Below, one piece after another: positions 1-7,224 of a DNA stretch of 64,000 nucleotides (position 1 is the stretch's first letter; each line of letters opens with the position of its first letter). The stretch is from Pseudoalteromonas ruthenica (GTDB lineage: Bacteria; Pseudomonadota; Gammaproteobacteria; Enterobacterales; Alteromonadaceae). The notes beneath the pieces were generated by a model, which was given only the letters and a program-made list of their open reading frames with translations, was not told the origin of the DNA and ran no database searches. Location: the NCBI RefSeq assembly GCF_008808095.1, contig NZ_CP023396.1, positions 2,559,501 to 2,623,500 of the forward strand. The letters run 5' to 3'. Both the position numbers and the translations under genes were made by a program.

Positions 1-43
1 ACATTTTGAAACTGATAAGCATAGAAAAGGAATTAATTTAACC

Positions 44-1123
44 ATGACTACGCCCATAGCGCCCTTGCCGCTCTCTAATATCGAACAATGGGAAACGCGC
101 GCGGTGCTAAAAAAGACAGCGACTGCGCACCGGTACCTTGCTGAACTTAAAGGCGTTGCCGCGAGCATTCCCAATGAAGCCATTTTAATTAACACCTTGT
201 CCCTGCAAGAAGCAAAAGACAGTTCAGAAGTAGAGAACATCGTCACAACTCACGATGAGCTTTATAAGGCAAGCCTCTTTGAAGAAGCGGTAACCAACCC
301 TGCCACAAAAGAAGTACAAGACTATGCCGTTGCTTTAAAACAAGGGTTCGAAACAGCGCGTAAAAGCAAACTTATTCGCCTTGATGACATCCTGGCTATT
401 CAACGAAATCTGGAACATAACAACGCCGGGCTGCGTAAACTGCCCGGTACCGATCTAAAAAATGCACGCACAGGTGAAGTGGTTTACACCCCACCACAAC
501 ACGCAGATGAAATCACAAAACTTATGGACAACCTTGTGCAGTTTATCAATAACGATGAACTATGCGATGCCGACCCACTCGTTAAAATGGCTATAATTCA
601 CCACCAATTTGAGAGCATTCATCCGTTTTACGATGGTAATGGCCGTACCGGGCGTATTTTGAATATTCTGTATTTAGTCACCAAAGATTTACTTAACTTA
701 CCAGTGCTATATCTCAGCCGGTTTGTGATTAAAAACAAAGCTGATTACTACGCCAACCTACAAGCAGTGCGCGATAGCGGCAATTGGGAGCCTTGGCTAG
801 AGTTTATGCTTGATGGTGTCATTGATACCGCACAAAACACCATTTCACTGATCACCGCTATGAAACACCTTATGGCAGAAGTAAAACATGGTATTAGAGA
901 GCAGCTTCCTAAAATTTACAGCCAAGACTTACTCAACAACCTATTTAACCACCCCTACACCAAGATAGACTTTATTGTCGAGGAACTCGGTGTCACTCGC
1001 ATTACCGCCACCAAATATCTGGAGCAGCTGGTGGAACACGGCTTTTTAACCAAACAAAAAGTAGGCCGTGCTAATTACTATATTAACGAGCCTTTGTGCG
1101 CCCTACTGGTTGCCCACGGCTAA
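44..1123 (+). CDS. Fic family protein (probable AMP transferase), class II autoinhibited
   Basis: A 359-aa Fic/DOC enzyme, a family that usually transfers AMP from ATP to a hydroxyl side chain of a target protein. The catalytic loop HPFYDGNGRTGR begins at His193 and is intact. The segment SSEVEN (Ser60-Asn65) fits the inhibitory [S/T]xxxE[G/N] motif, placed N-terminal to the core as in class II Fic proteins, so the enzyme is probably kept off until released. The last ~80 residues look like a winged helix (VEELGVTRITATKYLEQL), which suggests DNA binding or autoregulation. It lies 27 bp upstream of hsdM on the same strand and is probably the same operon; Fic genes often accompany type I restriction loci. 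Its target is unknown. A loose AAGGA-type site precedes the ATG. Confidence 0.9.
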   Translation: MTTPIAPLPLSNIEQWETRAVLKKTATAHRYLAELKGVAASIPNEAILINTLSLQEAKDSSEVENIVTTHDELYKASLFEEAVTNPATKEVQDYAVALKQGFETARKSKLIRLDDILAIQRNLEHNNAGLRKLPGTDLKNARTGEVVYTPPQHADEITKLMDNLVQFINNDELCDADPLVKMAIIHHQFESIHPFYDGNGRTGRILNILYLVTKDLLNLPVLYLSRFVIKNKADYYANLQAVRDSGNWEPWLEFMLDGVIDTAQNTISLITAMKHLMAEVKHGIREQLPKIYSQDLLNNLFNHPYTKIDFIVEELGVTRITATKYLEQLVEHGFLTKQKVGRANYYINEPLCALLVAHG

Positions 1124-1150
1124 CGCCTAATTACTAATTCTGAGAACATC

Positions 1151-2818
1151 ATGACTAATAACGACATCGTACAAAAACTCTGGAACCTGTGTGACGTATT
1201 ACGTGACGACGGCATTAACTACAGCGACTATGTCACTGAACTCGTACTGCTTCTTTTTATTAAAATGGTGCACGAAAACACCGAAGCAGGCGTGTTAAAA
1301 AAACACCCGCTGCCAGAGGGCTGCCGCTGGCAAGACATTAGCGAAAAGTCAGGTATCAACTTACTTAATGATTACAAAGCTATTTTGTTTGCGCTTTCAA
1401 CGGGTAAACGCCTTGAAGCAGACCCAGAAAACCCAGGCCAAACCAAAGAAGTTCAGGTACACGAAGACCCATTGATCAGTGCTATTTATGCTGATGCACA
1501 AACCCGCCTGCGTGAGCCGCGTCATTTAGAACAAATGATTAAAACGTTGGACCAAATAGACTGGTTTAGTGCGCAAAAAGACGGCCTAGGTGACTTATAT
1601 GAAGGCTTATTAGAAAAAAACGCCAGCGAGACTAAATCTGGTGCGGGACAATATTTCACACCCCGCGCTCTTATTAACTCAATGGTGCGTTGCATCAAGC
1701 CTCAAACAGGCGAAGTAATCCAAGACCCAGCAGCAGGCACCGCAGGCTTTTTGGTCGCAGCAGATCAATACATGCGCGAGCAAACCGACGACTATTTTGA
1801 TTTAAGCCCTAAAGACGCCGAATACCAAAAGAATAAAGCCTTTGTAGGCATTGAGCTCGTACCCAACACCCGCCGCTTATCGTTGATGAATTGTTTGTTG
1901 CACGGTATGGAAGGCGATGAAGAAGGCGTGGTGCACTTAGGCAATGCACTCGGTGATGCAGGTAAAGCCCTAGAAAGCGCAGATATCATTTTAGCTAACC
2001 CGCCATTTGGCACCAGTAAAGGCGGCGAAGCCAGCAATACCCGTGACGACCTCACCTACAAAACAGGAAACAAACAACTGGCATTTTTACAGCACATTTA
2101 CCGCAACCTAAAGCCAGGCGGCCGTGCCGCTGTGGTATTGCCTGATAACGTGTTGTTTGAAGCGGGCGTCGGCACAGAGGTGCGCCGCGACCTTATGAAC
2201 AAGTGTAACTTACATACCATACTGCGCTTGCCTACTGGCATCTTCTACGCCCAAGGCGTAAAAACCAATGTGCTGTTTTTCACGAAAGGCTCAGTAACCG
2301 ACAAGTACCAAGAAGAAAACTGCACCGAAAACGTTTGGGTGTATGACTTACGCACCAATATGCCGAGCTTTGGTAAACGTACACCTTTTGGTAACTCCGA
2401 TATTGGCTTTGCATCAGAAGATTTTGGTAAAGACCCGCACTTAGGGGCATTTGAAAAAGCATTTGATCCTGTAGGTCGTGATTTATCGCGACAATCAGAT
2501 ATAGCCACTATACTTGCAGCCCGAACCCAAGGCGAATACAGTTTTGGCGCAGAAGAAATCGCCGTAGATAAAGAAGCGGCCGCCGAAAACCAAGGCGTCG
2601 ACGACAAACTCGCCCACAGCCGCTGGCGCTGTTTTACTCGCCAGTGGATCAGCGACACCAAAAACGACTCACTCGATATCAGTTGGTTAAAAGACAAAGA
2701 CAGTGTCGATGCCGCCGACCTACCAGCGGCAGAAGTGTTAGCACAAGAAGCCAAAGAGGGGTTGACCAGTGCGCTGGTGGAGTTAGATGAGTTGCTTGCG
2801 GAGCTGGCAGATGACTAA
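1151..2818 (+). CDS. hsdM: Type I restriction-modification system DNA methyltransferase subunit HsdM
   Basis: A 555-aa N6-adenine methyltransferase, the modification subunit of a type I system; with HsdS it methylates adenine in a bipartite target. The N-terminal ~150 residues form the HsdM helical domain. AdoMet motif I reads DPAAGTAGFL starting at Asp192, and catalytic motif IV reads NPPFG starting at Asn283; both are intact. The length is normal for the family. It follows fic by 27 bp, and its stop overlaps the hsdS start by 8 bp (ATGACTAA), indicating translational coupling. Catalytic activity is inferred from motif conservation. No HsdR translocase/nuclease is visible in the window; it could lie to the left of base 1. 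Confidence 0.96.
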   Translation: MTNNDIVQKLWNLCDVLRDDGINYSDYVTELVLLLFIKMVHENTEAGVLKKHPLPEGCRWQDISEKSGINLLNDYKAILFALSTGKRLEADPENPGQTKEVQVHEDPLISAIYADAQTRLREPRHLEQMIKTLDQIDWFSAQKDGLGDLYEGLLEKNASETKSGAGQYFTPRALINSMVRCIKPQTGEVIQDPAAGTAGFLVAADQYMREQTDDYFDLSPKDAEYQKNKAFVGIELVPNTRRLSLMNCLLHGMEGDEEGVVHLGNALGDAGKALESADIILANPPFGTSKGGEASNTRDDLTYKTGNKQLAFLQHIYRNLKPGGRAAVVLPDNVLFEAGVGTEVRRDLMNKCNLHTILRLPTGIFYAQGVKTNVLFFTKGSVTDKYQEENCTENVWVYDLRTNMPSFGKRTPFGNSDIGFASEDFGKDPHLGAFEKAFDPVGRDLSRQSDIATILAARTQGEYSFGAEEIAVDKEAAAENQGVDDKLAHSRWRCFTRQWISDTKNDSLDISWLKDKDSVDAADLPAAEVLAQEAKEGLTSALVELDELLAELADD

Positions 2819-4337
2819 TTCTATTTTAGGCGAATGGTGCACTGTTACTCTTGGCGATATTGTTGACTATGGTAAAGCCGAAAAATGCCGCCTAGAAGAT
2901 GTAAGTTCTTCAACTTGGGTGTTAGAGCTTGAAGATATACAAAAGGAATCTTCAAAGCTGATAAAAAGGGTTGATGCGGCAGAAAGACAATTTAAAAGTA
3001 CGAAGAATAAATTCAAATCAGGAGATGTGCTTTACGGTAAGCTACGCCCATATTTAGATAAAGTGATTATTGCTGATCAAGAGGGTGTTGCAACTACAGA
3101 AATCATCCCTATGGATGCGAGTCCATATGTCGATAATAGATACCTCTTTTATTGGTTAAAAGGAGATAAGTTTTTATCTTATGTAAATGAAGTGAGCTAC
3201 GGTGTGAATATGCCACGGCTTGGAACAAGAGATGGTAACGCAGCTCCGTTTGTTCTCCCACCACTCGCTGAACAGAAAGTCATTGCAGAAAAGCTGGATA
3301 AGCTACTAGCGAAAGTCGATAGCATCAAAGCACACCTCGGCGCCGTCCCCGACACCCTAAAACGCTTCCGCCAATCCGTCCTCGCCGCCGCCGTCAGCGG
3401 CAAATTGACAGAAGAGTGGCGTTCAACAAGAGCTTTGGAGGAACTGACAGTTTCAATCAACGAAGTCCATGAGAAACGCAAACAGACTTGGATTGATGAA
3501 CAAGTAAAAGCTGCTGTACGGAAGGGCGTATCATATAAGATTGAGCAAATTGCAAAAAAATATAAAGAGCCTACAGAGCAAACTTTGGACGAGTTTGACC
3601 TCACCCTGATTAAACATATTCCTGAAGAATGGGTTAGTACAAATTTAGATAGTGTTTCCGTTGCTGTTACAGGTAAAACGCCCAAGACTACAGAAGAGTC
3701 TTACTGGAATGGTGATATTCCCTTCATAAGTCCTTCTCAAATCACTAATGAAGGACGTTTAACTTCGCCGGAGAGACACGTAACACAAGAAGGAACAAGT
3801 AAGACGACTATTTTACCTTATGGTTCAATAATGATTGTCTGTATTGGAACAATTGGTAAAGTTGGTTTAGTTGATAAGGAAGTAGCTTTCAATCAACAGA
3901 TTAATGCGTTAATACCGACTCAAGTAGTATTACCTGAGTTTTTGTTTTTTTGGTCAAAAACTCTTCATTCATGGTTGAATAAAACTTCAAGTGCAGTTGT
4001 GAATGCAGCCATTATTAATAAATCGAGGCTTTGTTCCGCTCCTTGTCCTCTACCTAGTATTGCAGAACAAACCGAAATCGTCAGGCGCGCAGAAAAACTC
4101 TTTGCCTATGCTGACAAAATCGAAGCCGAAGTGAACGCCGCCCAAGAGCGTGTAAATAAGCTGACTCAATCGATCCTCGCCAAAGCATTCCGTGGTGAGC
4201 TCACCGCCAAATGGCGCGAACAAAATCCGGACCTCATCAGCGGTGACAACTCCGCCGAAGCCTTGCTAGCAAAGATCAAAGCTGAGCGAGAAAAGCTAAA
4301 GCCAAAGAAGAAAATACACACAAGGAAAAAAGTGTAA
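2811..4337 (+). CDS. hsdS: Type I restriction-modification system specificity subunit HsdS
   Basis: A 508-aa specificity subunit with the standard two-half plan: a target recognition domain (TRD; about residues 1-165), a conserved spacer helix (VLAAAVSGKLTEEW, near residue 200), a second TRD (about 265-420) and a C-terminal conserved helix (SILAKAFRGELTAKWRE) repeating the first. ATG 2811 is chosen over the ATG at 2787 because it gives the coupled 8-bp overlap with hsdM and a natural N-terminus (MTNSILGEW). TRDs are AT-rich and conserved spacers GC-rich, the usual mark of TRD exchange. It sets the sequence methylated by HsdM; the target cannot be read from the sequence. The stop overlaps the next start by one base (TAATG). 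Confidence 0.95.
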   Translation: MTNSILGEWCTVTLGDIVDYGKAEKCRLEDVSSSTWVLELEDIQKESSKLIKRVDAAERQFKSTKNKFKSGDVLYGKLRPYLDKVIIADQEGVATTEIIPMDASPYVDNRYLFYWLKGDKFLSYVNEVSYGVNMPRLGTRDGNAAPFVLPPLAEQKVIAEKLDKLLAKVDSIKAHLGAVPDTLKRFRQSVLAAAVSGKLTEEWRSTRALEELTVSINEVHEKRKQTWIDEQVKAAVRKGVSYKIEQIAKKYKEPTEQTLDEFDLTLIKHIPEEWVSTNLDSVSVAVTGKTPKTTEESYWNGDIPFISPSQITNEGRLTSPERHVTQEGTSKTTILPYGSIMIVCIGTIGKVGLVDKEVAFNQQINALIPTQVVLPEFLFFWSKTLHSWLNKTSSAVVNAAIINKSRLCSAPCPLPSIAEQTEIVRRAEKLFAYADKIEAEVNAAQERVNKLTQSILAKAFRGELTAKWREQNPDLISGDNSAEALLAKIKAEREKLKPKKKIHTRKKV

Positions 4338-6100
4338 TGCGCTTACTGTCACTGAGATTAGATGGAGAATATAAAGGCCTAAGAAATCGCCTCTTTAACT
4401 TTGAAAGCACCACAGATAATGTAATTGCTTTTATTGGGTTAAACGGTTCAGGGAAATCTCAGTTGCTGGAGCTGATCGCTGAATGTTTTGCATACTTAGA
4501 AAGGCTACAACGAGATGATTTCAAAAATAAGGGCCATCTTGCTTTTGATTTCACCCTAATTTACAGCATGAAAGGTTATGTCAATCAATCACCATTTGAC
4601 AAAACAACTGTATTTGGTCAAAAGCTTCGAGTTGAGGAAGGCTTTACGGACCCTATATTTACCGTCGCAGTCAATGCTAACGGCAAACCAAAAATTAAGG
4701 TTGAGCAGCAGGGACAAATAAACAACATAGATATAGAACAATTAACACTGCCCTATGTTGTTGGTTACTCCTCAGGCTTAAATGAAAATCTACAAAGGCC
4801 GTTTTTAAAAAATGCTAACCAATTATTCAAAGCATTAAGAGCGCGTGCTCGATATCACAAGGAAAAGCGAAAGTTGGATATTGGTTACGAGCAAAATCTT
4901 AATGATACAGAGCTTTCATTTAACACTTATCAAAAAAATAAAAAAGAACTACTGAAAAAATACAAACGAAACCATCCTTACTTGTTTACCTACAATACCG
5001 CAGAATATCTAGAAGATGAGCAAGAGTTACCCGAAACGACAACGCATCTATCTAATTTTATTTACCTAGACTACGACAGTGCTCAATTTGCCGTTGCCTT
5101 AAGTGATTTTCGGTTTAATGCCCTTTTTAAGAAGAGTAGATCTAAAAAAGAAAATTTAACGAGCCTTACTTACACGACTCCTACGTTGCTACAGCTAGAG
5201 TTTGATTTTACTCTGTCTCACGTTACCGATGAAATCGTTGATGATGTAAGGTCATTTATCAGAATAGCTGAATCAACAGGCGGAGCCATCAAATACACCG
5301 GCGTCAATACGACCACTGAAGAGTATGATTATTACGAGTTAGACTCTTTAAAAGGCATTATTAGTCTTGACCTAAAACGTTTAGCTTTTGAAAGTAAACT
5401 ATCAACGTTTGGTACCTATGACCCATTCAGATTATTTGAGCGCTTATACAAAGCACAGCAACTTGGCATGAAAAACGTTAATTCACATGGCCGAAAATAC
5501 CTAGAGAAAAATGGCTTCATTGGTACGGTTAAGAAACCCCTCAAAGTAAGACTTCCCCTTATGTCTAAACGTTTGATGTTGACTGGTGATGATCTCAATG
5601 AAGTTGCCTATGAAGAATTATCTGATGGCGAGTCTCAACTATTGCAAGTATTGGCCATTATAAAGCTATACACCAATGAAAATACGTTATTCCTTTTTGA
5701 TGAGCCTGAAACACATTTAAACCCAGCTTGGCGAACAATGTTTCATACTTATTTAACAAAGGCATTAATGGGCGAAGGTAAAGAAACAAATTCGCAGGTG
5801 TTCGTATCAACTCACTCCCCATTCATGGTGTCCTCACTTAAGCGCAGCAATGTGTTCTTGTTTAGCCGCAAAGGCAAAGAAGAGATAAACTTTCAGCCAG
5901 TTCAAAAAGAGACCTATGGCGCCTCATTTGATGTATTAATTAAAGACTTTTTCGAGTTACGCTCATTAATATCGCAAAGCGTTATAGATGAAATCAGAGA
6001 GCAGTTAGAAAAAGGGGACACCCACGCAAAAGAGTGGATTGAAGACAACCTAGGCTTGTCTGCTGAAAAAGCCTACTTGATAAGGAAATTGAGTCAATAA
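4337..6100 (+). CDS. AAA/ABC-type ATPase of restriction-associated, PtuA-like (Septu) type
   Basis: A 587-aa ATPase of the RecF/SMC/OLD-like branch. Walker A is GLNGSGKS at 34-41 (Lys40), the ABC signature is LSDGES at 428-433, Walker B is LFLFDEPETHLNP with Asp455-Glu456, and the His switch is STHSP with His493. All ATP-site elements are intact. The middle insert (about 130-400) is lysine-rich and helical and should carry the partner-specific function. It is coupled by a 1-bp overlap to hsdS and to the HNH gene downstream. An ATPase of this class followed directly by an HNH protein is the gene order of Septu (PtuA-PtuB); related ATPases are also known beside type I restriction loci. A TOPRIM domain of the OLD type is not evident. 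Role in anti-phage sensing is inference. Confidence 0.85.
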   Translation: MRLLSLRLDGEYKGLRNRLFNFESTTDNVIAFIGLNGSGKSQLLELIAECFAYLERLQRDDFKNKGHLAFDFTLIYSMKGYVNQSPFDKTTVFGQKLRVEEGFTDPIFTVAVNANGKPKIKVEQQGQINNIDIEQLTLPYVVGYSSGLNENLQRPFLKNANQLFKALRARARYHKEKRKLDIGYEQNLNDTELSFNTYQKNKKELLKKYKRNHPYLFTYNTAEYLEDEQELPETTTHLSNFIYLDYDSAQFAVALSDFRFNALFKKSRSKKENLTSLTYTTPTLLQLEFDFTLSHVTDEIVDDVRSFIRIAESTGGAIKYTGVNTTTEEYDYYELDSLKGIISLDLKRLAFESKLSTFGTYDPFRLFERLYKAQQLGMKNVNSHGRKYLEKNGFIGTVKKPLKVRLPLMSKRLMLTGDDLNEVAYEELSDGESQLLQVLAIIKLYTNENTLFLFDEPETHLNPAWRTMFHTYLTKALMGEGKETNSQVFVSTHSPFMVSSLKRSNVFLFSRKGKEEINFQPVQKETYGASFDVLIKDFFELRSLISQSVIDEIREQLEKGDTHAKEWIEDNLGLSAEKAYLIRKLSQ

Positions 6101-7224
6101 TGCTGTTTCGTTTAGACCCCAATACACCAAGCTTTGAAGTATTTAGATTGCTTAATGAAGAGCTTCTATACTTCCTGGAACAAGCTGTTACTACAAATAC
6201 ATTTAGCCGAGCTCTATTTAATCAGGGGGCTGTTGGACAAGCTTGCTGGGATAATGCTCAAGAGAACGATGCTAGAGCCAAAAGCGGCCTGACAAGAGAC
6301 AAATTTCAAGAGTTATTTGTAGCTTTAAATGAAGCTGATGAAGATATAAGACAACAGCTATTTGAGTTGATGCGAGACACTCAAGATCTTCAAGCATTCT
6401 TTGATGCTCCCCAAAGAAGTTTACTTGATTTTATGGACGAACCAAGCCGAAAAGCCTTCAAGAAATTATCCACTCACCTATATTGCTCAACAAAAGATTT
6501 AGACCCTGTTATTGCAGCCTCCGGTGGTACAAACATCACCGCACACTTTAATGACTTTCGTGATCAGTTGATTAACGGCAATGTTTGCAAAGCTTGCGGC
6601 ATGGAAAAACTGGCCCCATTCAGAGCCGGAGTGCCCGATGGTGATCAGTGGCGTGCAGATTACGACCACCAGTTATGCAAATCAAAATACCCTTTATTTG
6701 CTGTACATCCAGACAATCTGATCCCCCTCTGTGATGTGTGCAATCAAGATGCAAAAAAGGCAAAAGACTTATTTAGACACAAAGATGGCACTGACCGTTT
6801 GGCATTTTATCCCGCTACCGAAGAAGCAAAAACCTTTATCAATATTGCATTGGAGCAACTTCATGATCCTGAGCCTACTATAAAAGTAAACTGGAACGCT
6901 CCTGACGATACTATATTAAATAAACTCACTACTTGGGATGAAGTCTATGAAATACGCAATCGAGTTGAAGGACAATTTCGCTCTTTAGAAGCAATAATAG
7001 AAGATGAGCTTAATCCAAATAGCCTAGCAGATGTAAGAGAAAGAATAATCGATAAAGCCCAGCCCCTATCTCCCAATACGCTAAAAAGGAAGGAATGGGC
7101 ATTCTGGTATCAGAAGTTATTTGCTGAGCTGGACCAGATCGACGTAGCTCCTTTTGCCGCTAAGTGGGAGTTCATTCAACAACAAGCTACTGATGGTGGT
7201 GATTACATTCTGAACCCACCATAG
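6100..7224 (+). CDS. HNH endonuclease, PtuB-like with extended N- and C-termini
   Basis: A 374-aa predicted nuclease. The central part has a zinc-ribbon HNH fold: Cys163-x2-Cys166 (VCKACG), DYDH with Asp189-His190, HPDNLIPLC with Asn206, and Cys211-x2-Cys214 (CDVCN). The pattern DH...KSKYPLFAVHPDNLIPLCxxCN closely resembles PtuB-type HNH proteins of Septu and of retron Ec78-like systems. About 150 helical residues precede and about 120 follow the HNH core, longer than a minimal PtuB; these may bind the ATPase. The ATG overlaps the ATPase stop by one base, so the two are almost certainly made together. Last gene of the operon, followed by a terminator at 7391. The nuclease call is solid; whether it acts on DNA or RNA is not visible. 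Confidence 0.82.
   Translation: MLFRLDPNTPSFEVFRLLNEELLYFLEQAVTTNTFSRALFNQGAVGQACWDNAQENDARAKSGLTRDKFQELFVALNEADEDIRQQLFELMRDTQDLQAFFDAPQRSLLDFMDEPSRKAFKKLSTHLYCSTKDLDPVIAASGGTNITAHFNDFRDQLINGNVCKACGMEKLAPFRAGVPDGDQWRADYDHQLCKSKYPLFAVHPDNLIPLCDVCNQDAKKAKDLFRHKDGTDRLAFYPATEEAKTFINIALEQLHDPEPTIKVNWNAPDDTILNKLTTWDEVYEIRNRVEGQFRSLEAIIEDELNPNSLADVRERIIDKAQPLSPNTLKRKEWAFWYQKLFAELDQIDVAPFAAKWEFIQQQATDGGDYILNPP

What the first reader, a model, noticed from the sequence alone, without database searches (positions are those of the whole stretch)
44..7224. Hybrid defence operon: Fic + HsdM/HsdS + PtuA-like ATPase + PtuB-like HNH nuclease
Five genes run in one direction with overlapping stops and starts (8 bp, 1 bp, 1 bp). 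The first three are a Fic enzyme and a type I methyltransferase with its specificity subunit; the last two have the gene order and motifs of Septu (PtuA-PtuB). No hsdR is seen inside the operon. The arrangement suggests either that the ATPase-HNH pair replaces or backs up HsdR as the effector guided by the methylation state, or that two systems share one transcript, with Septu acting if restriction is inhibited. Motifs and overlaps are seen; Septu resemblance is known-family reasoning; the joint mechanism is inference.
Basis: partly seen in the sequence, partly recalled or inferred. Interest (0 to 1): 0.75.

Follow-up and report, generated by a model that had tools for sequence, protein, structure and literature searches.

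The report
Backup nuclease pair in restriction operon
A complete DNA restriction-modification operon in a marine bacterium carries, right behind its target-recognition gene, an ATPase and a nuclease that resemble a known anti-phage pair; in related operons that same position is often filled by other defence modules, so it looks like a plug-in socket for a second line of defence.

Summary
The five genes are real, but the window edge cuts the operon: a complete hsdR ends 73 bp left of base 1, so the locus is hsdR-fic-hsdM-hsdS-ATPase-HNH, and 'the pair replaces HsdR' is rejected. The ATPase is a long-range relative of PtuA (Septu); the nuclease is another HNH family with no profile match to two PtuB kinds. 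The link is not chance: 24 of 25 judgeable loci have hsdS upstream of the pair. In an order-wide survey with the window's HsdM, the gene behind hsdS belonged to a recognised or candidate defence module in 19 of 30 loci: this pair, true Septu, McrBC, GmrSD, unnamed candidates. The ATPase's last ~75 residues vary with the nuclease, its body hardly does, which suggests a docking tail (or plain linkage). A palindrome found only twice in 4.1 Mb sits between hsdR and fic and mostly follows the type of Fic's DNA-binding domain. Best reading: an RM guardian working like PrrC, with a Septu-like motor and another nuclease. Anatomy and association are shown; trigger, latency and target are inferred. No structure model could be made. 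New variant of a known kind.

The parts
1..4 (.). Right end of the second of two 29-bp palindromes ATGTATA-N15-TATACAT in the hsdR-fic spacer (genome C1:2559476-2559504; the first, C1:2559435-2559463, lies wholly left of the window); probable Fic operator (inference)
   Evidence: The only two sites with up to 1 mismatch in 4.1 Mb; palindrome type mostly follows the Fic DNA-binding type
44..1123 (+). Fic protein, SoFic-like, motif HPFYDGNGRTGR, with C-terminal helix-turn-helix
   Evidence: Pfam Fic_N, Fic, SoFic-like_C; PADLOC SoFic 5e-120; NF046030 384 bits, below its cut-off of 550
1151..2818 (+). hsdM, type I N6-adenine methyltransferase
   Evidence: N6_Mtase 6e-72, HsdM_N above cut-off; only HsdM_N match in the genome
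2811..4337 (+). hsdS, type I specificity subunit with two matched target-recognition stretches (the longest ORF starts at 2787)
   Evidence: Methylase_S 1.3e-33, two stretches
4337..6100 (+). ABC-type ATPase of the wider PtuA kind; Walker A ~4436-4459, LSDGE ~5618-5632, Walker B DEPETHLNP ~5699-5725
   Evidence: PADLOC PtuA 9e-50; TIGR04435 3.5e-56, below cut-off; PDB top hits PtuA/retron ATPases, local matches; hhalign to slot PtuA prob 99.8, 445 columns
5879..6097 (+). C-terminal tail of the ATPase (about residues 515-587), proposed docking site for the HNH protein (inference)
   Evidence: Pairwise identity of residues 500-587 tracks the HNH protein (Spearman 0.74, 0 of 2000 permutations as high) while residues 1-415 do so weakly (0.20, 29 of 2000)
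6100..7224 (+). HNH-type nuclease with zinc-ribbon cysteines; partner of the ATPase; not PtuB
   Evidence: Invariant C163, C166, D189-H190, N206, C211, N215 in 32 sequences; PADLOC PDC-M62B 1e-12, PtuB only 2.7e-7; no profile match to two PtuB kinds

Best explanation
This is a complete type I (EcoEI-like HsdR) restriction-modification operon that carries an embedded second-line effector. The ATPase-HNH pair is packed into one transcript with HsdM/HsdS and most likely acts as an RM guardian: held inactive while the restriction complex is intact, and released or triggered when a phage inhibits or escapes it. The PtuA-like ATPase is the sensor and motor, its C-terminal tail carries the HNH nuclease, and the nuclease then cuts tRNA or DNA and stops the infection. 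It works like PrrC on EcoprrI, with a Septu-like ATPase and a non-PtuB nuclease. Shown: gene content, order, strong link to hsdS, alternative defence modules in the same place, conserved catalytic motifs, co-variation of tail and nuclease. Inferred: co-transcription, latency, trigger, substrate, docking, contact with HsdM/HsdS.
For: hsdR directly upstream. Of 26 HNH-homologous loci, 25 have ATPase-HNH gaps of 5 bp or less, and 24 of 25 judgeable loci have hsdS upstream (23 by BLAST, L031 by Pfam). In other type I architectures the pair still follows hsdS (L037, L038, L039, L140). Of 30 nonredundant loci with related hsdM, 19 hold a recognised or candidate defence module in that place: six true Septu, five McrBC, one GmrSD pair, three window-type pairs, four others. 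A same-strand gene within 60 bp follows hsdS in 21 of 30 but precedes hsdR in 3 of 19. Strong HNH relatives are hsdS-linked in 7 of 7 genomes; weak, partial ones in 0 of 6, and those six are the candidate pairs PDC-M01 or PDC-M62. Precedents seen in passages: PrrC embedded in EcoprrI and woken by phage Stp (PMC2610378; PMC12707154); DarTG2 between hsdS and hsdR in an island that protects against phage (PMC12255303); Septu cutting tRNA-Tyr and needing the PtuA Walker and PtuB HNH motifs (PMC13096335).
Against: No experiment. Nothing shows contact with HsdM or HsdS. Defence genes cluster anyway. The ATPase body hardly co-varies with HsdM (Spearman 0.05 to 0.31); the tail and the HNH protein do so moderately (0.53, 0.47), which common descent can explain. 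Only 15 of the 23 loci with BLAST-found hsdS have it within 5 bp of the ATPase gene; in the rest an extra gene, a second hsdS fragment or a spacer lies between. McrBC and GmrSD in the same place fit the simpler idea of complementary, uncoupled defences. In 5 of 30 loci the next ORF is on the opposite strand and in 5 it is of unknown kind. The strong/weak contrast is biased because the search profile was built mainly from RM-linked members, and several loci are the same records or close kin. No structure model (predictor busy in 22 attempts).
Confidence: 0.55

Rival explanations
1. Independent Septu-like system riding on the RM transcript. The ATPase-HNH pair senses its own phage cue and needs only the promoter and translational coupling of the hsd operon; there is no functional link to restriction.
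For: Distant free-standing relatives of the pair exist without hsd genes in view (6 of 6 weak hits); true Septu and McrBC use the same place; one judgeable related locus, L013, has no hsd genes in view.
Against: 24 of 25 judgeable loci and 7 of 7 strong hits keep the link, behind hsdS, also in other type I architectures (two of the seven are the same records as loci among the 26); a freely riding system should be found alone more often.
Confidence: 0.28
2. Modification- or methylation-guided DNA nuclease. The pair acts on phage DNA that evades the type I enzyme (modified or otherwise protected), complementing HsdR as McrBC and GmrSD do, possibly using HsdM2S for target choice.
For: McrBC in 5 and a GmrSD pair in 1 of 30 sibling loci at the same place; HNH nucleases often cut DNA (recalled).
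Against: The ATPase is of the ABC/PtuA kind, not the McrB kind; no modified-base-binding domain in the Pfam scan; the published Septu relative cuts tRNA (PMC13096335).
Confidence: 0.14
3. The pair replaces or backs up HsdR as the nuclease of the type I enzyme.
For: One locus, L038, has hsdS-ATPase(broken)-HNH-hsdM and no hsdR in the 18 kb fetched; the rest of that genome was not searched for the window's HsdR.
Against: hsdR is directly upstream in the window's genome, in view in 19 of 26 loci and elsewhere in the genomes of L019 and L020; L038 looks decayed.
Confidence: 0.03

Closest known systems
Septu (PtuA-PtuB)
   Same: ABC-ATPase gene followed by an HNH-nuclease gene, overlapping; ATPase homologous to PtuA over most of its length; true Septu pairs occupy the same position in six of 30 sibling operons, one with a split ptuB.
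   Different: The HNH partner is larger (374 aa) with no detectable profile relation to two PtuB kinds; the ATPase falls outside the PtuA branch of the tree, with weak support; strong link to type I RM.
TIGR04435 'restriction system-associated AAA family ATPase' (NCBIfam)
   Same: Best NCBIfam match of the ATPase; true members in L037 and L039 lie in the same hsdS-ATPase-HNH arrangement.
   Different: Window ATPase scores 191 bits against a cut-off of 300; no NCBIfam model hit the three HNH proteins scanned (window at E 0.1; L037 and L039 at 1e-20).
PrrC / EcoprrI
   Same: Effector gene embedded in a type I RM operon; ABC-type ATPase; published latent state in the RM complex and activation by a phage anti-restriction peptide (passages).
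   Different: PrrC is a single protein with an anticodon-nuclease domain; here a separate HNH protein. Latency and activation are untested.
DarTG2 in the EPEC type I RM island
   Same: Toxin-antitoxin module embedded between hsdS and hsdR of a type I system, with its own regulator (PMC12255303 passages).
   Different: DarTG2 is a toxin-antitoxin pair unrelated to the ATPase-HNH pair (recalled: DarT ADP-ribosylates DNA); regulator RptR, not Fic.
McrBC / GmrSD of the immigration control region
   Same: Type IV enzymes clustered with hsdRMS in enterics (PMC12707154 passages); found here behind hsdS in related operons.
   Different: Unrelated proteins; act on modified DNA.
PADLOC candidates PDC-M01 and PDC-M62 (ATPase + HNH)
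   Same: Best PADLOC families of the window's HNH core; the six free-standing relatives score as PDC-M01B (4) or PDC-M62B (2).
   Different: The window protein matches only around the HNH core; the six free-standing loci have no hsd genes in view.

Membership tests
Type I restriction-modification system | hsdR, hsdM and hsdS in one operon | tested here: met
   hsdR with ResIII, helicase and EcoEI_R_C domains, HSDR_N 25 bits, 27 with its neighbours, cut-off 25.1; hsdM, hsdS
Septu | PtuA-type ATPase | tested here: met
   PADLOC PtuA 9e-50; hhalign prob 99.8 over 445 columns against 57 (prob 93.5) for a single control AAA sequence; PDB top hits PtuA and retron ATPases
Septu | ATPase lies within the PtuA branch | tested here: inconclusive
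   Tree groups it with TIGR04435 members, apart from slot PtuA, at 83/72, with long branches; retron PtuA model NF041760 40 bits of 500
Septu | PtuB-type HNH partner | tested here: not met
   hhalign prob 0.2 and 0.3 against two PtuB kinds; PADLOC PtuB 2.7e-7, residues 180-245 only
Septu | Cleavage of tRNA or DNA on infection | not testable with these tools
   needs experiment
TIGR04435 restrict_AAA_1 | Score above curated cut-off | tested here: not met
   191 of 300 bits; L037 806 and L039 482 do pass
TIGR04435 restrict_AAA_1 | Association with a restriction system | tested here: met
PrrC-type RM guardian | Gene embedded in a type I RM operon | tested here: met
PrrC-type RM guardian | Anticodon-nuclease domain fused to the ATPase | tested here: not met
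   No such Pfam hit; the nuclease is a separate HNH protein
PrrC-type RM guardian | Silent in the RM complex, activated by anti-restriction | not testable with these tools
   needs experiment
PARIS (AriA-AriB) | AriA ATPase with Toprim AriB | tested here: not met
   AriA match 1.7e-21, weaker than PtuA 9e-50; partner is HNH, no Toprim hit
MADS | MAD2/MAD3/MAD5 above cut-off | tested here: not met
   96 of 720, 32 of 420, 33 of 400 bits

The most novel reading that the evidence does not exclude
The position behind hsdS is a true effector socket: the HsdM2S complex, or its translation complex, physically docks interchangeable latent effectors (ATPase-HNH, Septu, PrrC, DarTG and others) and releases them when restriction is blocked, so type I enzymes act as a general sensor hub for abortive defence. 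Within it, the window's pair is a new two-protein guardian whose nuclease is carried by a swappable tail of the ATPase, with Fic as the DNA-binding regulator of the hsdMS-effector half of the operon.
Probability: 0.25. Interest if true: 0.82.

Novelty: new variant of a known kind. Interest (0 to 1): 0.6.

Why it matters
Only a few RM guardians are known (a 2025 review names PrrC and PARIS; passages). Here many type I operons of one family carry different effectors in one place, which gives a list of candidate guardians and a natural experiment: similar HsdRMS, different effector. If Septu and its relatives are tied to restriction there, the question of what triggers them becomes testable: inhibit the restriction enzyme and look.

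Tried and rejected
Pair replaces HsdR: rejected. HNH protein as PtuB: rejected by profile comparison; PDB sequence searches gave nothing useful. Filing under TIGR04435, MADS or PARIS: rejected on scores. An att repeat of the yicC 3' region with 14-base exact seeds: none found, so the island ends are set only by comparison with relatives. Sigma-70 promoter scan: 10 sites against 14.8 expected in shuffles, so uninformative, though one site (10 of 12) lies between hsdR and fic. Plasmid search with the HNH protein: 2 weak partial hits among 72,556 records, not followed. TIGR04435 in the literature: no paper. A single origin for all RM-linked HNH proteins: not shown, the tree needs two changes and has long branches. 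Structure prediction: 22 attempts, machine busy each time, so no fold search was possible. Looked for and not found in the held library: a paper describing an ATPase-HNH pair inside a type I RM operon (listings; most subscription papers are not held).
Full report
WHAT IS THERE. The window's first 7.2 kb hold five + strand genes as described: Fic, HsdM, HsdS, an ABC-type ATPase and an HNH protein. The window is C1:2559501-2623500 of a genome of 4.1 Mb in two contigs, rated 100% complete. Named close relatives of the ATPase and HNH proteins include Pseudoalteromonas, Alteromonas and Vreelandella, so the host is probably Pseudoalteromonas or close (inference). Left of base 1 an hsdR of 1176 aa with helicase and EcoEI_R_C domains ends 73 bp before the window. 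The locus is hsdR - 116 bp - fic - 27 bp - hsdM - hsdS - ATPase - HNH, the last four genes overlapping by 8, 1 and 1 bp. It holds the only HsdM_N and the only HSDR_N match found in the genome.

THE PAIR IS LINKED TO TYPE I RM. A scan of one genome per species with an HNH alignment gave 26 loci. In 25 of 26 the ATPase and HNH genes are 5 bp or less apart. One contig is too short to judge (L008). Of the other 25, 23 have hsdS and hsdM by BLAST and one more, a planctomycete (L031), has hsdS by Pfam; the exception, L013, has a broken ATPase gene and no hsd genes in view. In 15 of the 23 the hsdS and ATPase genes are within 5 bp; in the others an extra gene (L006, L018, L026, L030), a second hsdS fragment (L019, L023) or a short spacer (L022, L024) lies between. 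hsdR is in view in 19 of 26, fic in 9 of 26. The genomes of L019 and L020, whose stretches lack hsdR, hold a close HsdR. A class-wide search with the ATPase alignment (E 1e-30) hit 5 of 369 genomes, the window's own included. With the HNH profile (E 1e-6), 9 of 398 genomes of the phylum sample and 6 of 369 of the class sample match, 13 distinct genomes. The six weaker matches cover 28 to 137 of 367 profile positions and are two-gene ATPase-HNH loci with no hsd gene found by BLAST in the 5.7-17.5 kb fetched (L142 on a 5.7-kb contig); their HNH proteins score as PDC-M01B (4) or PDC-M62B (2). The profile was built mainly from RM-linked members, so this contrast is biased. The link holds in other type I architectures: hsdR-x-hsdM-hsdS-ATPase-HNH (L037), hsdR-hsdM-hsdS-ATPase-HNH (L140), hsdR-hsdS-ATPase-HNH-hsdM (L039), hsdS-ATPase(broken)-HNH-hsdM (L038). 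The constant element is 'behind hsdS'.

A SWAPPABLE PLACE. Searching 394 genomes of the order with the window's HsdM (E 1e-100) gave 33 genomes and 35 matches. I fetched 33 of the 35 regions, leaving out the window's own and one 245-aa fragment; two are extra copies from one genome, leaving 31, of which 30 extend past hsdS. Next behind hsdS: window-type ATPase-HNH in 3 (two are the records of L025 and L029); a PDC-M25 pair followed by a distant ATPase-HNH in 1 (L098); Septu PtuA-PtuB in 6; McrBC in 5; PDC-M65 in 2; a GmrSD_N pair in 1; PDC-M16 in 1; an unclassified protein followed by a defence-type helicase in 1 (L075); unknown same-strand genes in 5; an opposite-strand ORF in 5 (ORFs of 100 aa or more, called mechanically). 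Four of the five McrBC cases, one of the two PDC-M65 cases and part of the Septu genes rest on BLAST to the scanned ones; L101's PtuB is split into two ORFs. So 19 of 30 hold a recognised or candidate defence module. Same-strand genes within 60 bp: 21 of 30 behind hsdS against 3 of 19 before hsdR (in the other loci no ORF before hsdR was in the fetched stretch). The loci are not phylogenetically independent. Published cases fit: PrrC embedded in EcoprrI, DarTG2 between hsdS and hsdR, McrBC or GmrSD in the enteric immigration control region.

WHAT THE TWO PROTEINS ARE. The ATPase: PADLOC PtuA 9e-50; NCBIfam best is TIGR04435 at 191 of 300 bits; the top PDB sequence hits are PtuA and retron ATPases, mostly over the C-terminal ATPase motifs; hhalign to PtuA of sibling operons 99.8% over 445 columns, against 57 columns for a single control AAA sequence. 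In a tree it joins TIGR04435 members apart from PtuA, at weak support (83/72) and with several long branches. The HNH protein: invariant C163, C166, D189, H190, L192, H203, N206, C211 and N215 across 32 sequences down to 21% identity; PADLOC matches are to the HNH core of unnamed candidates (PDC-M62B 1e-12) and only faintly PtuB; no profile match to two PtuB kinds; none usable in PDB or NCBIfam. So: Septu-like motor, different nuclease.

TAIL AND NUCLEASE TRAVEL TOGETHER. Over 24 loci (window, L072 and 22 of the 26; L008, L013, L028 and L031 left out as cut, broken or too distant), pairwise identity of ATPase residues 500-587 tracks that of the HNH protein (Spearman 0.74; 0 of 2000 label permutations as high; 0.65 after removing HsdM), while residues 1-415 do so weakly (0.20, 29 of 2000; 0.18). 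In a sliding window the change comes at about residue 500-520. Six loci (L006, L007, L009-L012) share the window's tail (72-76%) and nuclease (67-70%) but have another ATPase body (18-24% at residues 200-415). Either the tail is the docking site of the nuclease, or neighbouring DNA simply recombines together; the data cannot separate these.

REGULATION. The hsdR-fic spacer holds two 29-bp palindromes ATGTATA-N15-TATACAT; with up to 1 mismatch these are the only two in 4.1 Mb (the reversed control pattern gave 1 hit on each strand). I grouped 16 Fic proteins by their C-terminal helix-turn-helix (L014 dropped because its upstream is cut, L082 and L040 as repeats of L025 and L028). 6 of 6 class 1 loci have this palindrome before fic and none the other; 8 of 8 class 2 loci have TGTCGA-N5-TCGACA, and 2 of these 8 also have the first; of two class 3 loci one has the second pattern and one has neither. 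In 70 loci (1.06 Mb) all 10 and all 11 sites lie before, or in one case at, the called fic start. The second pattern was defined after looking at the spacers, and several loci are close kin. Fic is thus the likely DNA-binding regulator of the fic-hsdM-hsdS-effector unit (inference). A text search for Fic with type I RM and winged helix gave no paper on this among the 10 of 19 listed.

MOBILITY. In 5 of the 14 other genus members whose yicC locus was read, gmk follows yicC within about 200 bp; in the window's genome about 24.7 kb lie between them (L002:5811 to window ~15472), starting with a tyrosine integrase.

MECHANISM. Most likely an RM guardian: PrrC-like logic, Septu-like motor, separate HNH effector (0.55). 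Septu needs the PtuA Walker and PtuB HNH motifs and cuts tRNA-Tyr (PMC13096335, abstract and passages), so tRNA is a fair first guess for the target, but an HNH protein of another family may cut DNA. The main rival is an independent effector that shares the transcript (0.28).

LITERATURE. Seen as passages: PMC2610378, PMC13096335, PMC8565338, PMC12255303, PMC12707154, PMC3874165. Listing only: PMC11555353. Not held: PMC12318543. The PADLOC paper (PMC8565338) describes retron-linked Septu; the passages seen mention no link of Septu to type I RM.

Noticed in passing
window 1-4 and genome C1:2559435-2559504: Fic-operator pairing: palindrome type in the hsdR-fic spacer follows the class of Fic's helix-turn-helix in 6 of 6 and 8 of 8 loci (two of the eight carry both; a third class is unclear), suggesting Fic proteins act as DNA-binding regulators of type I operons.
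   Followed up: partly
L002:5811 to window ~15472: Island of about 24.7 kb between yicC and gmk with a tyrosine integrase (L002:5969-7219); gmk follows yicC closely in 5 of 14 other genus members. Besides the RM operon it carries what read as a cation-diffusion facilitator, a chemoreceptor and an RND efflux system (from sequence).
   Followed up: partly
L006:7267-8067, L018:7305-8099, L030:6766-7470, L026:7411-8157: Extra genes between hsdS and the ATPase: DUF3800 proteins (Pfam for L006 and L030; L018 by likeness) and a DUF4145 protein (L026). DUF4145 is also found at the N-terminus of the window's HsdR.
   Followed up: partly
L076-L079: Family of up to 581 aa behind hsdS, with shortened copies (219 and 285 aa); the 581-aa member of L077 has no Pfam or PADLOC match. 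A candidate unknown effector.
   Followed up: partly
L098:612-5457: Two stacked effector modules behind hsdS: a PDC-M25 pair, then a distant ATPase-HNH pair.
   Followed up: no
L013:9068-13446: ATPase gene broken, HNH gene intact, no hsd genes in view, followed by an AAA_13 (RloC/PrrC-like) gene.
   Followed up: no
L019:1028-1744 and L020:4403-5137: Both stretches without hsdR carry an opposite-strand SAM-methyltransferase-like gene upstream of fic or hsdM (read from sequence).
   Followed up: no
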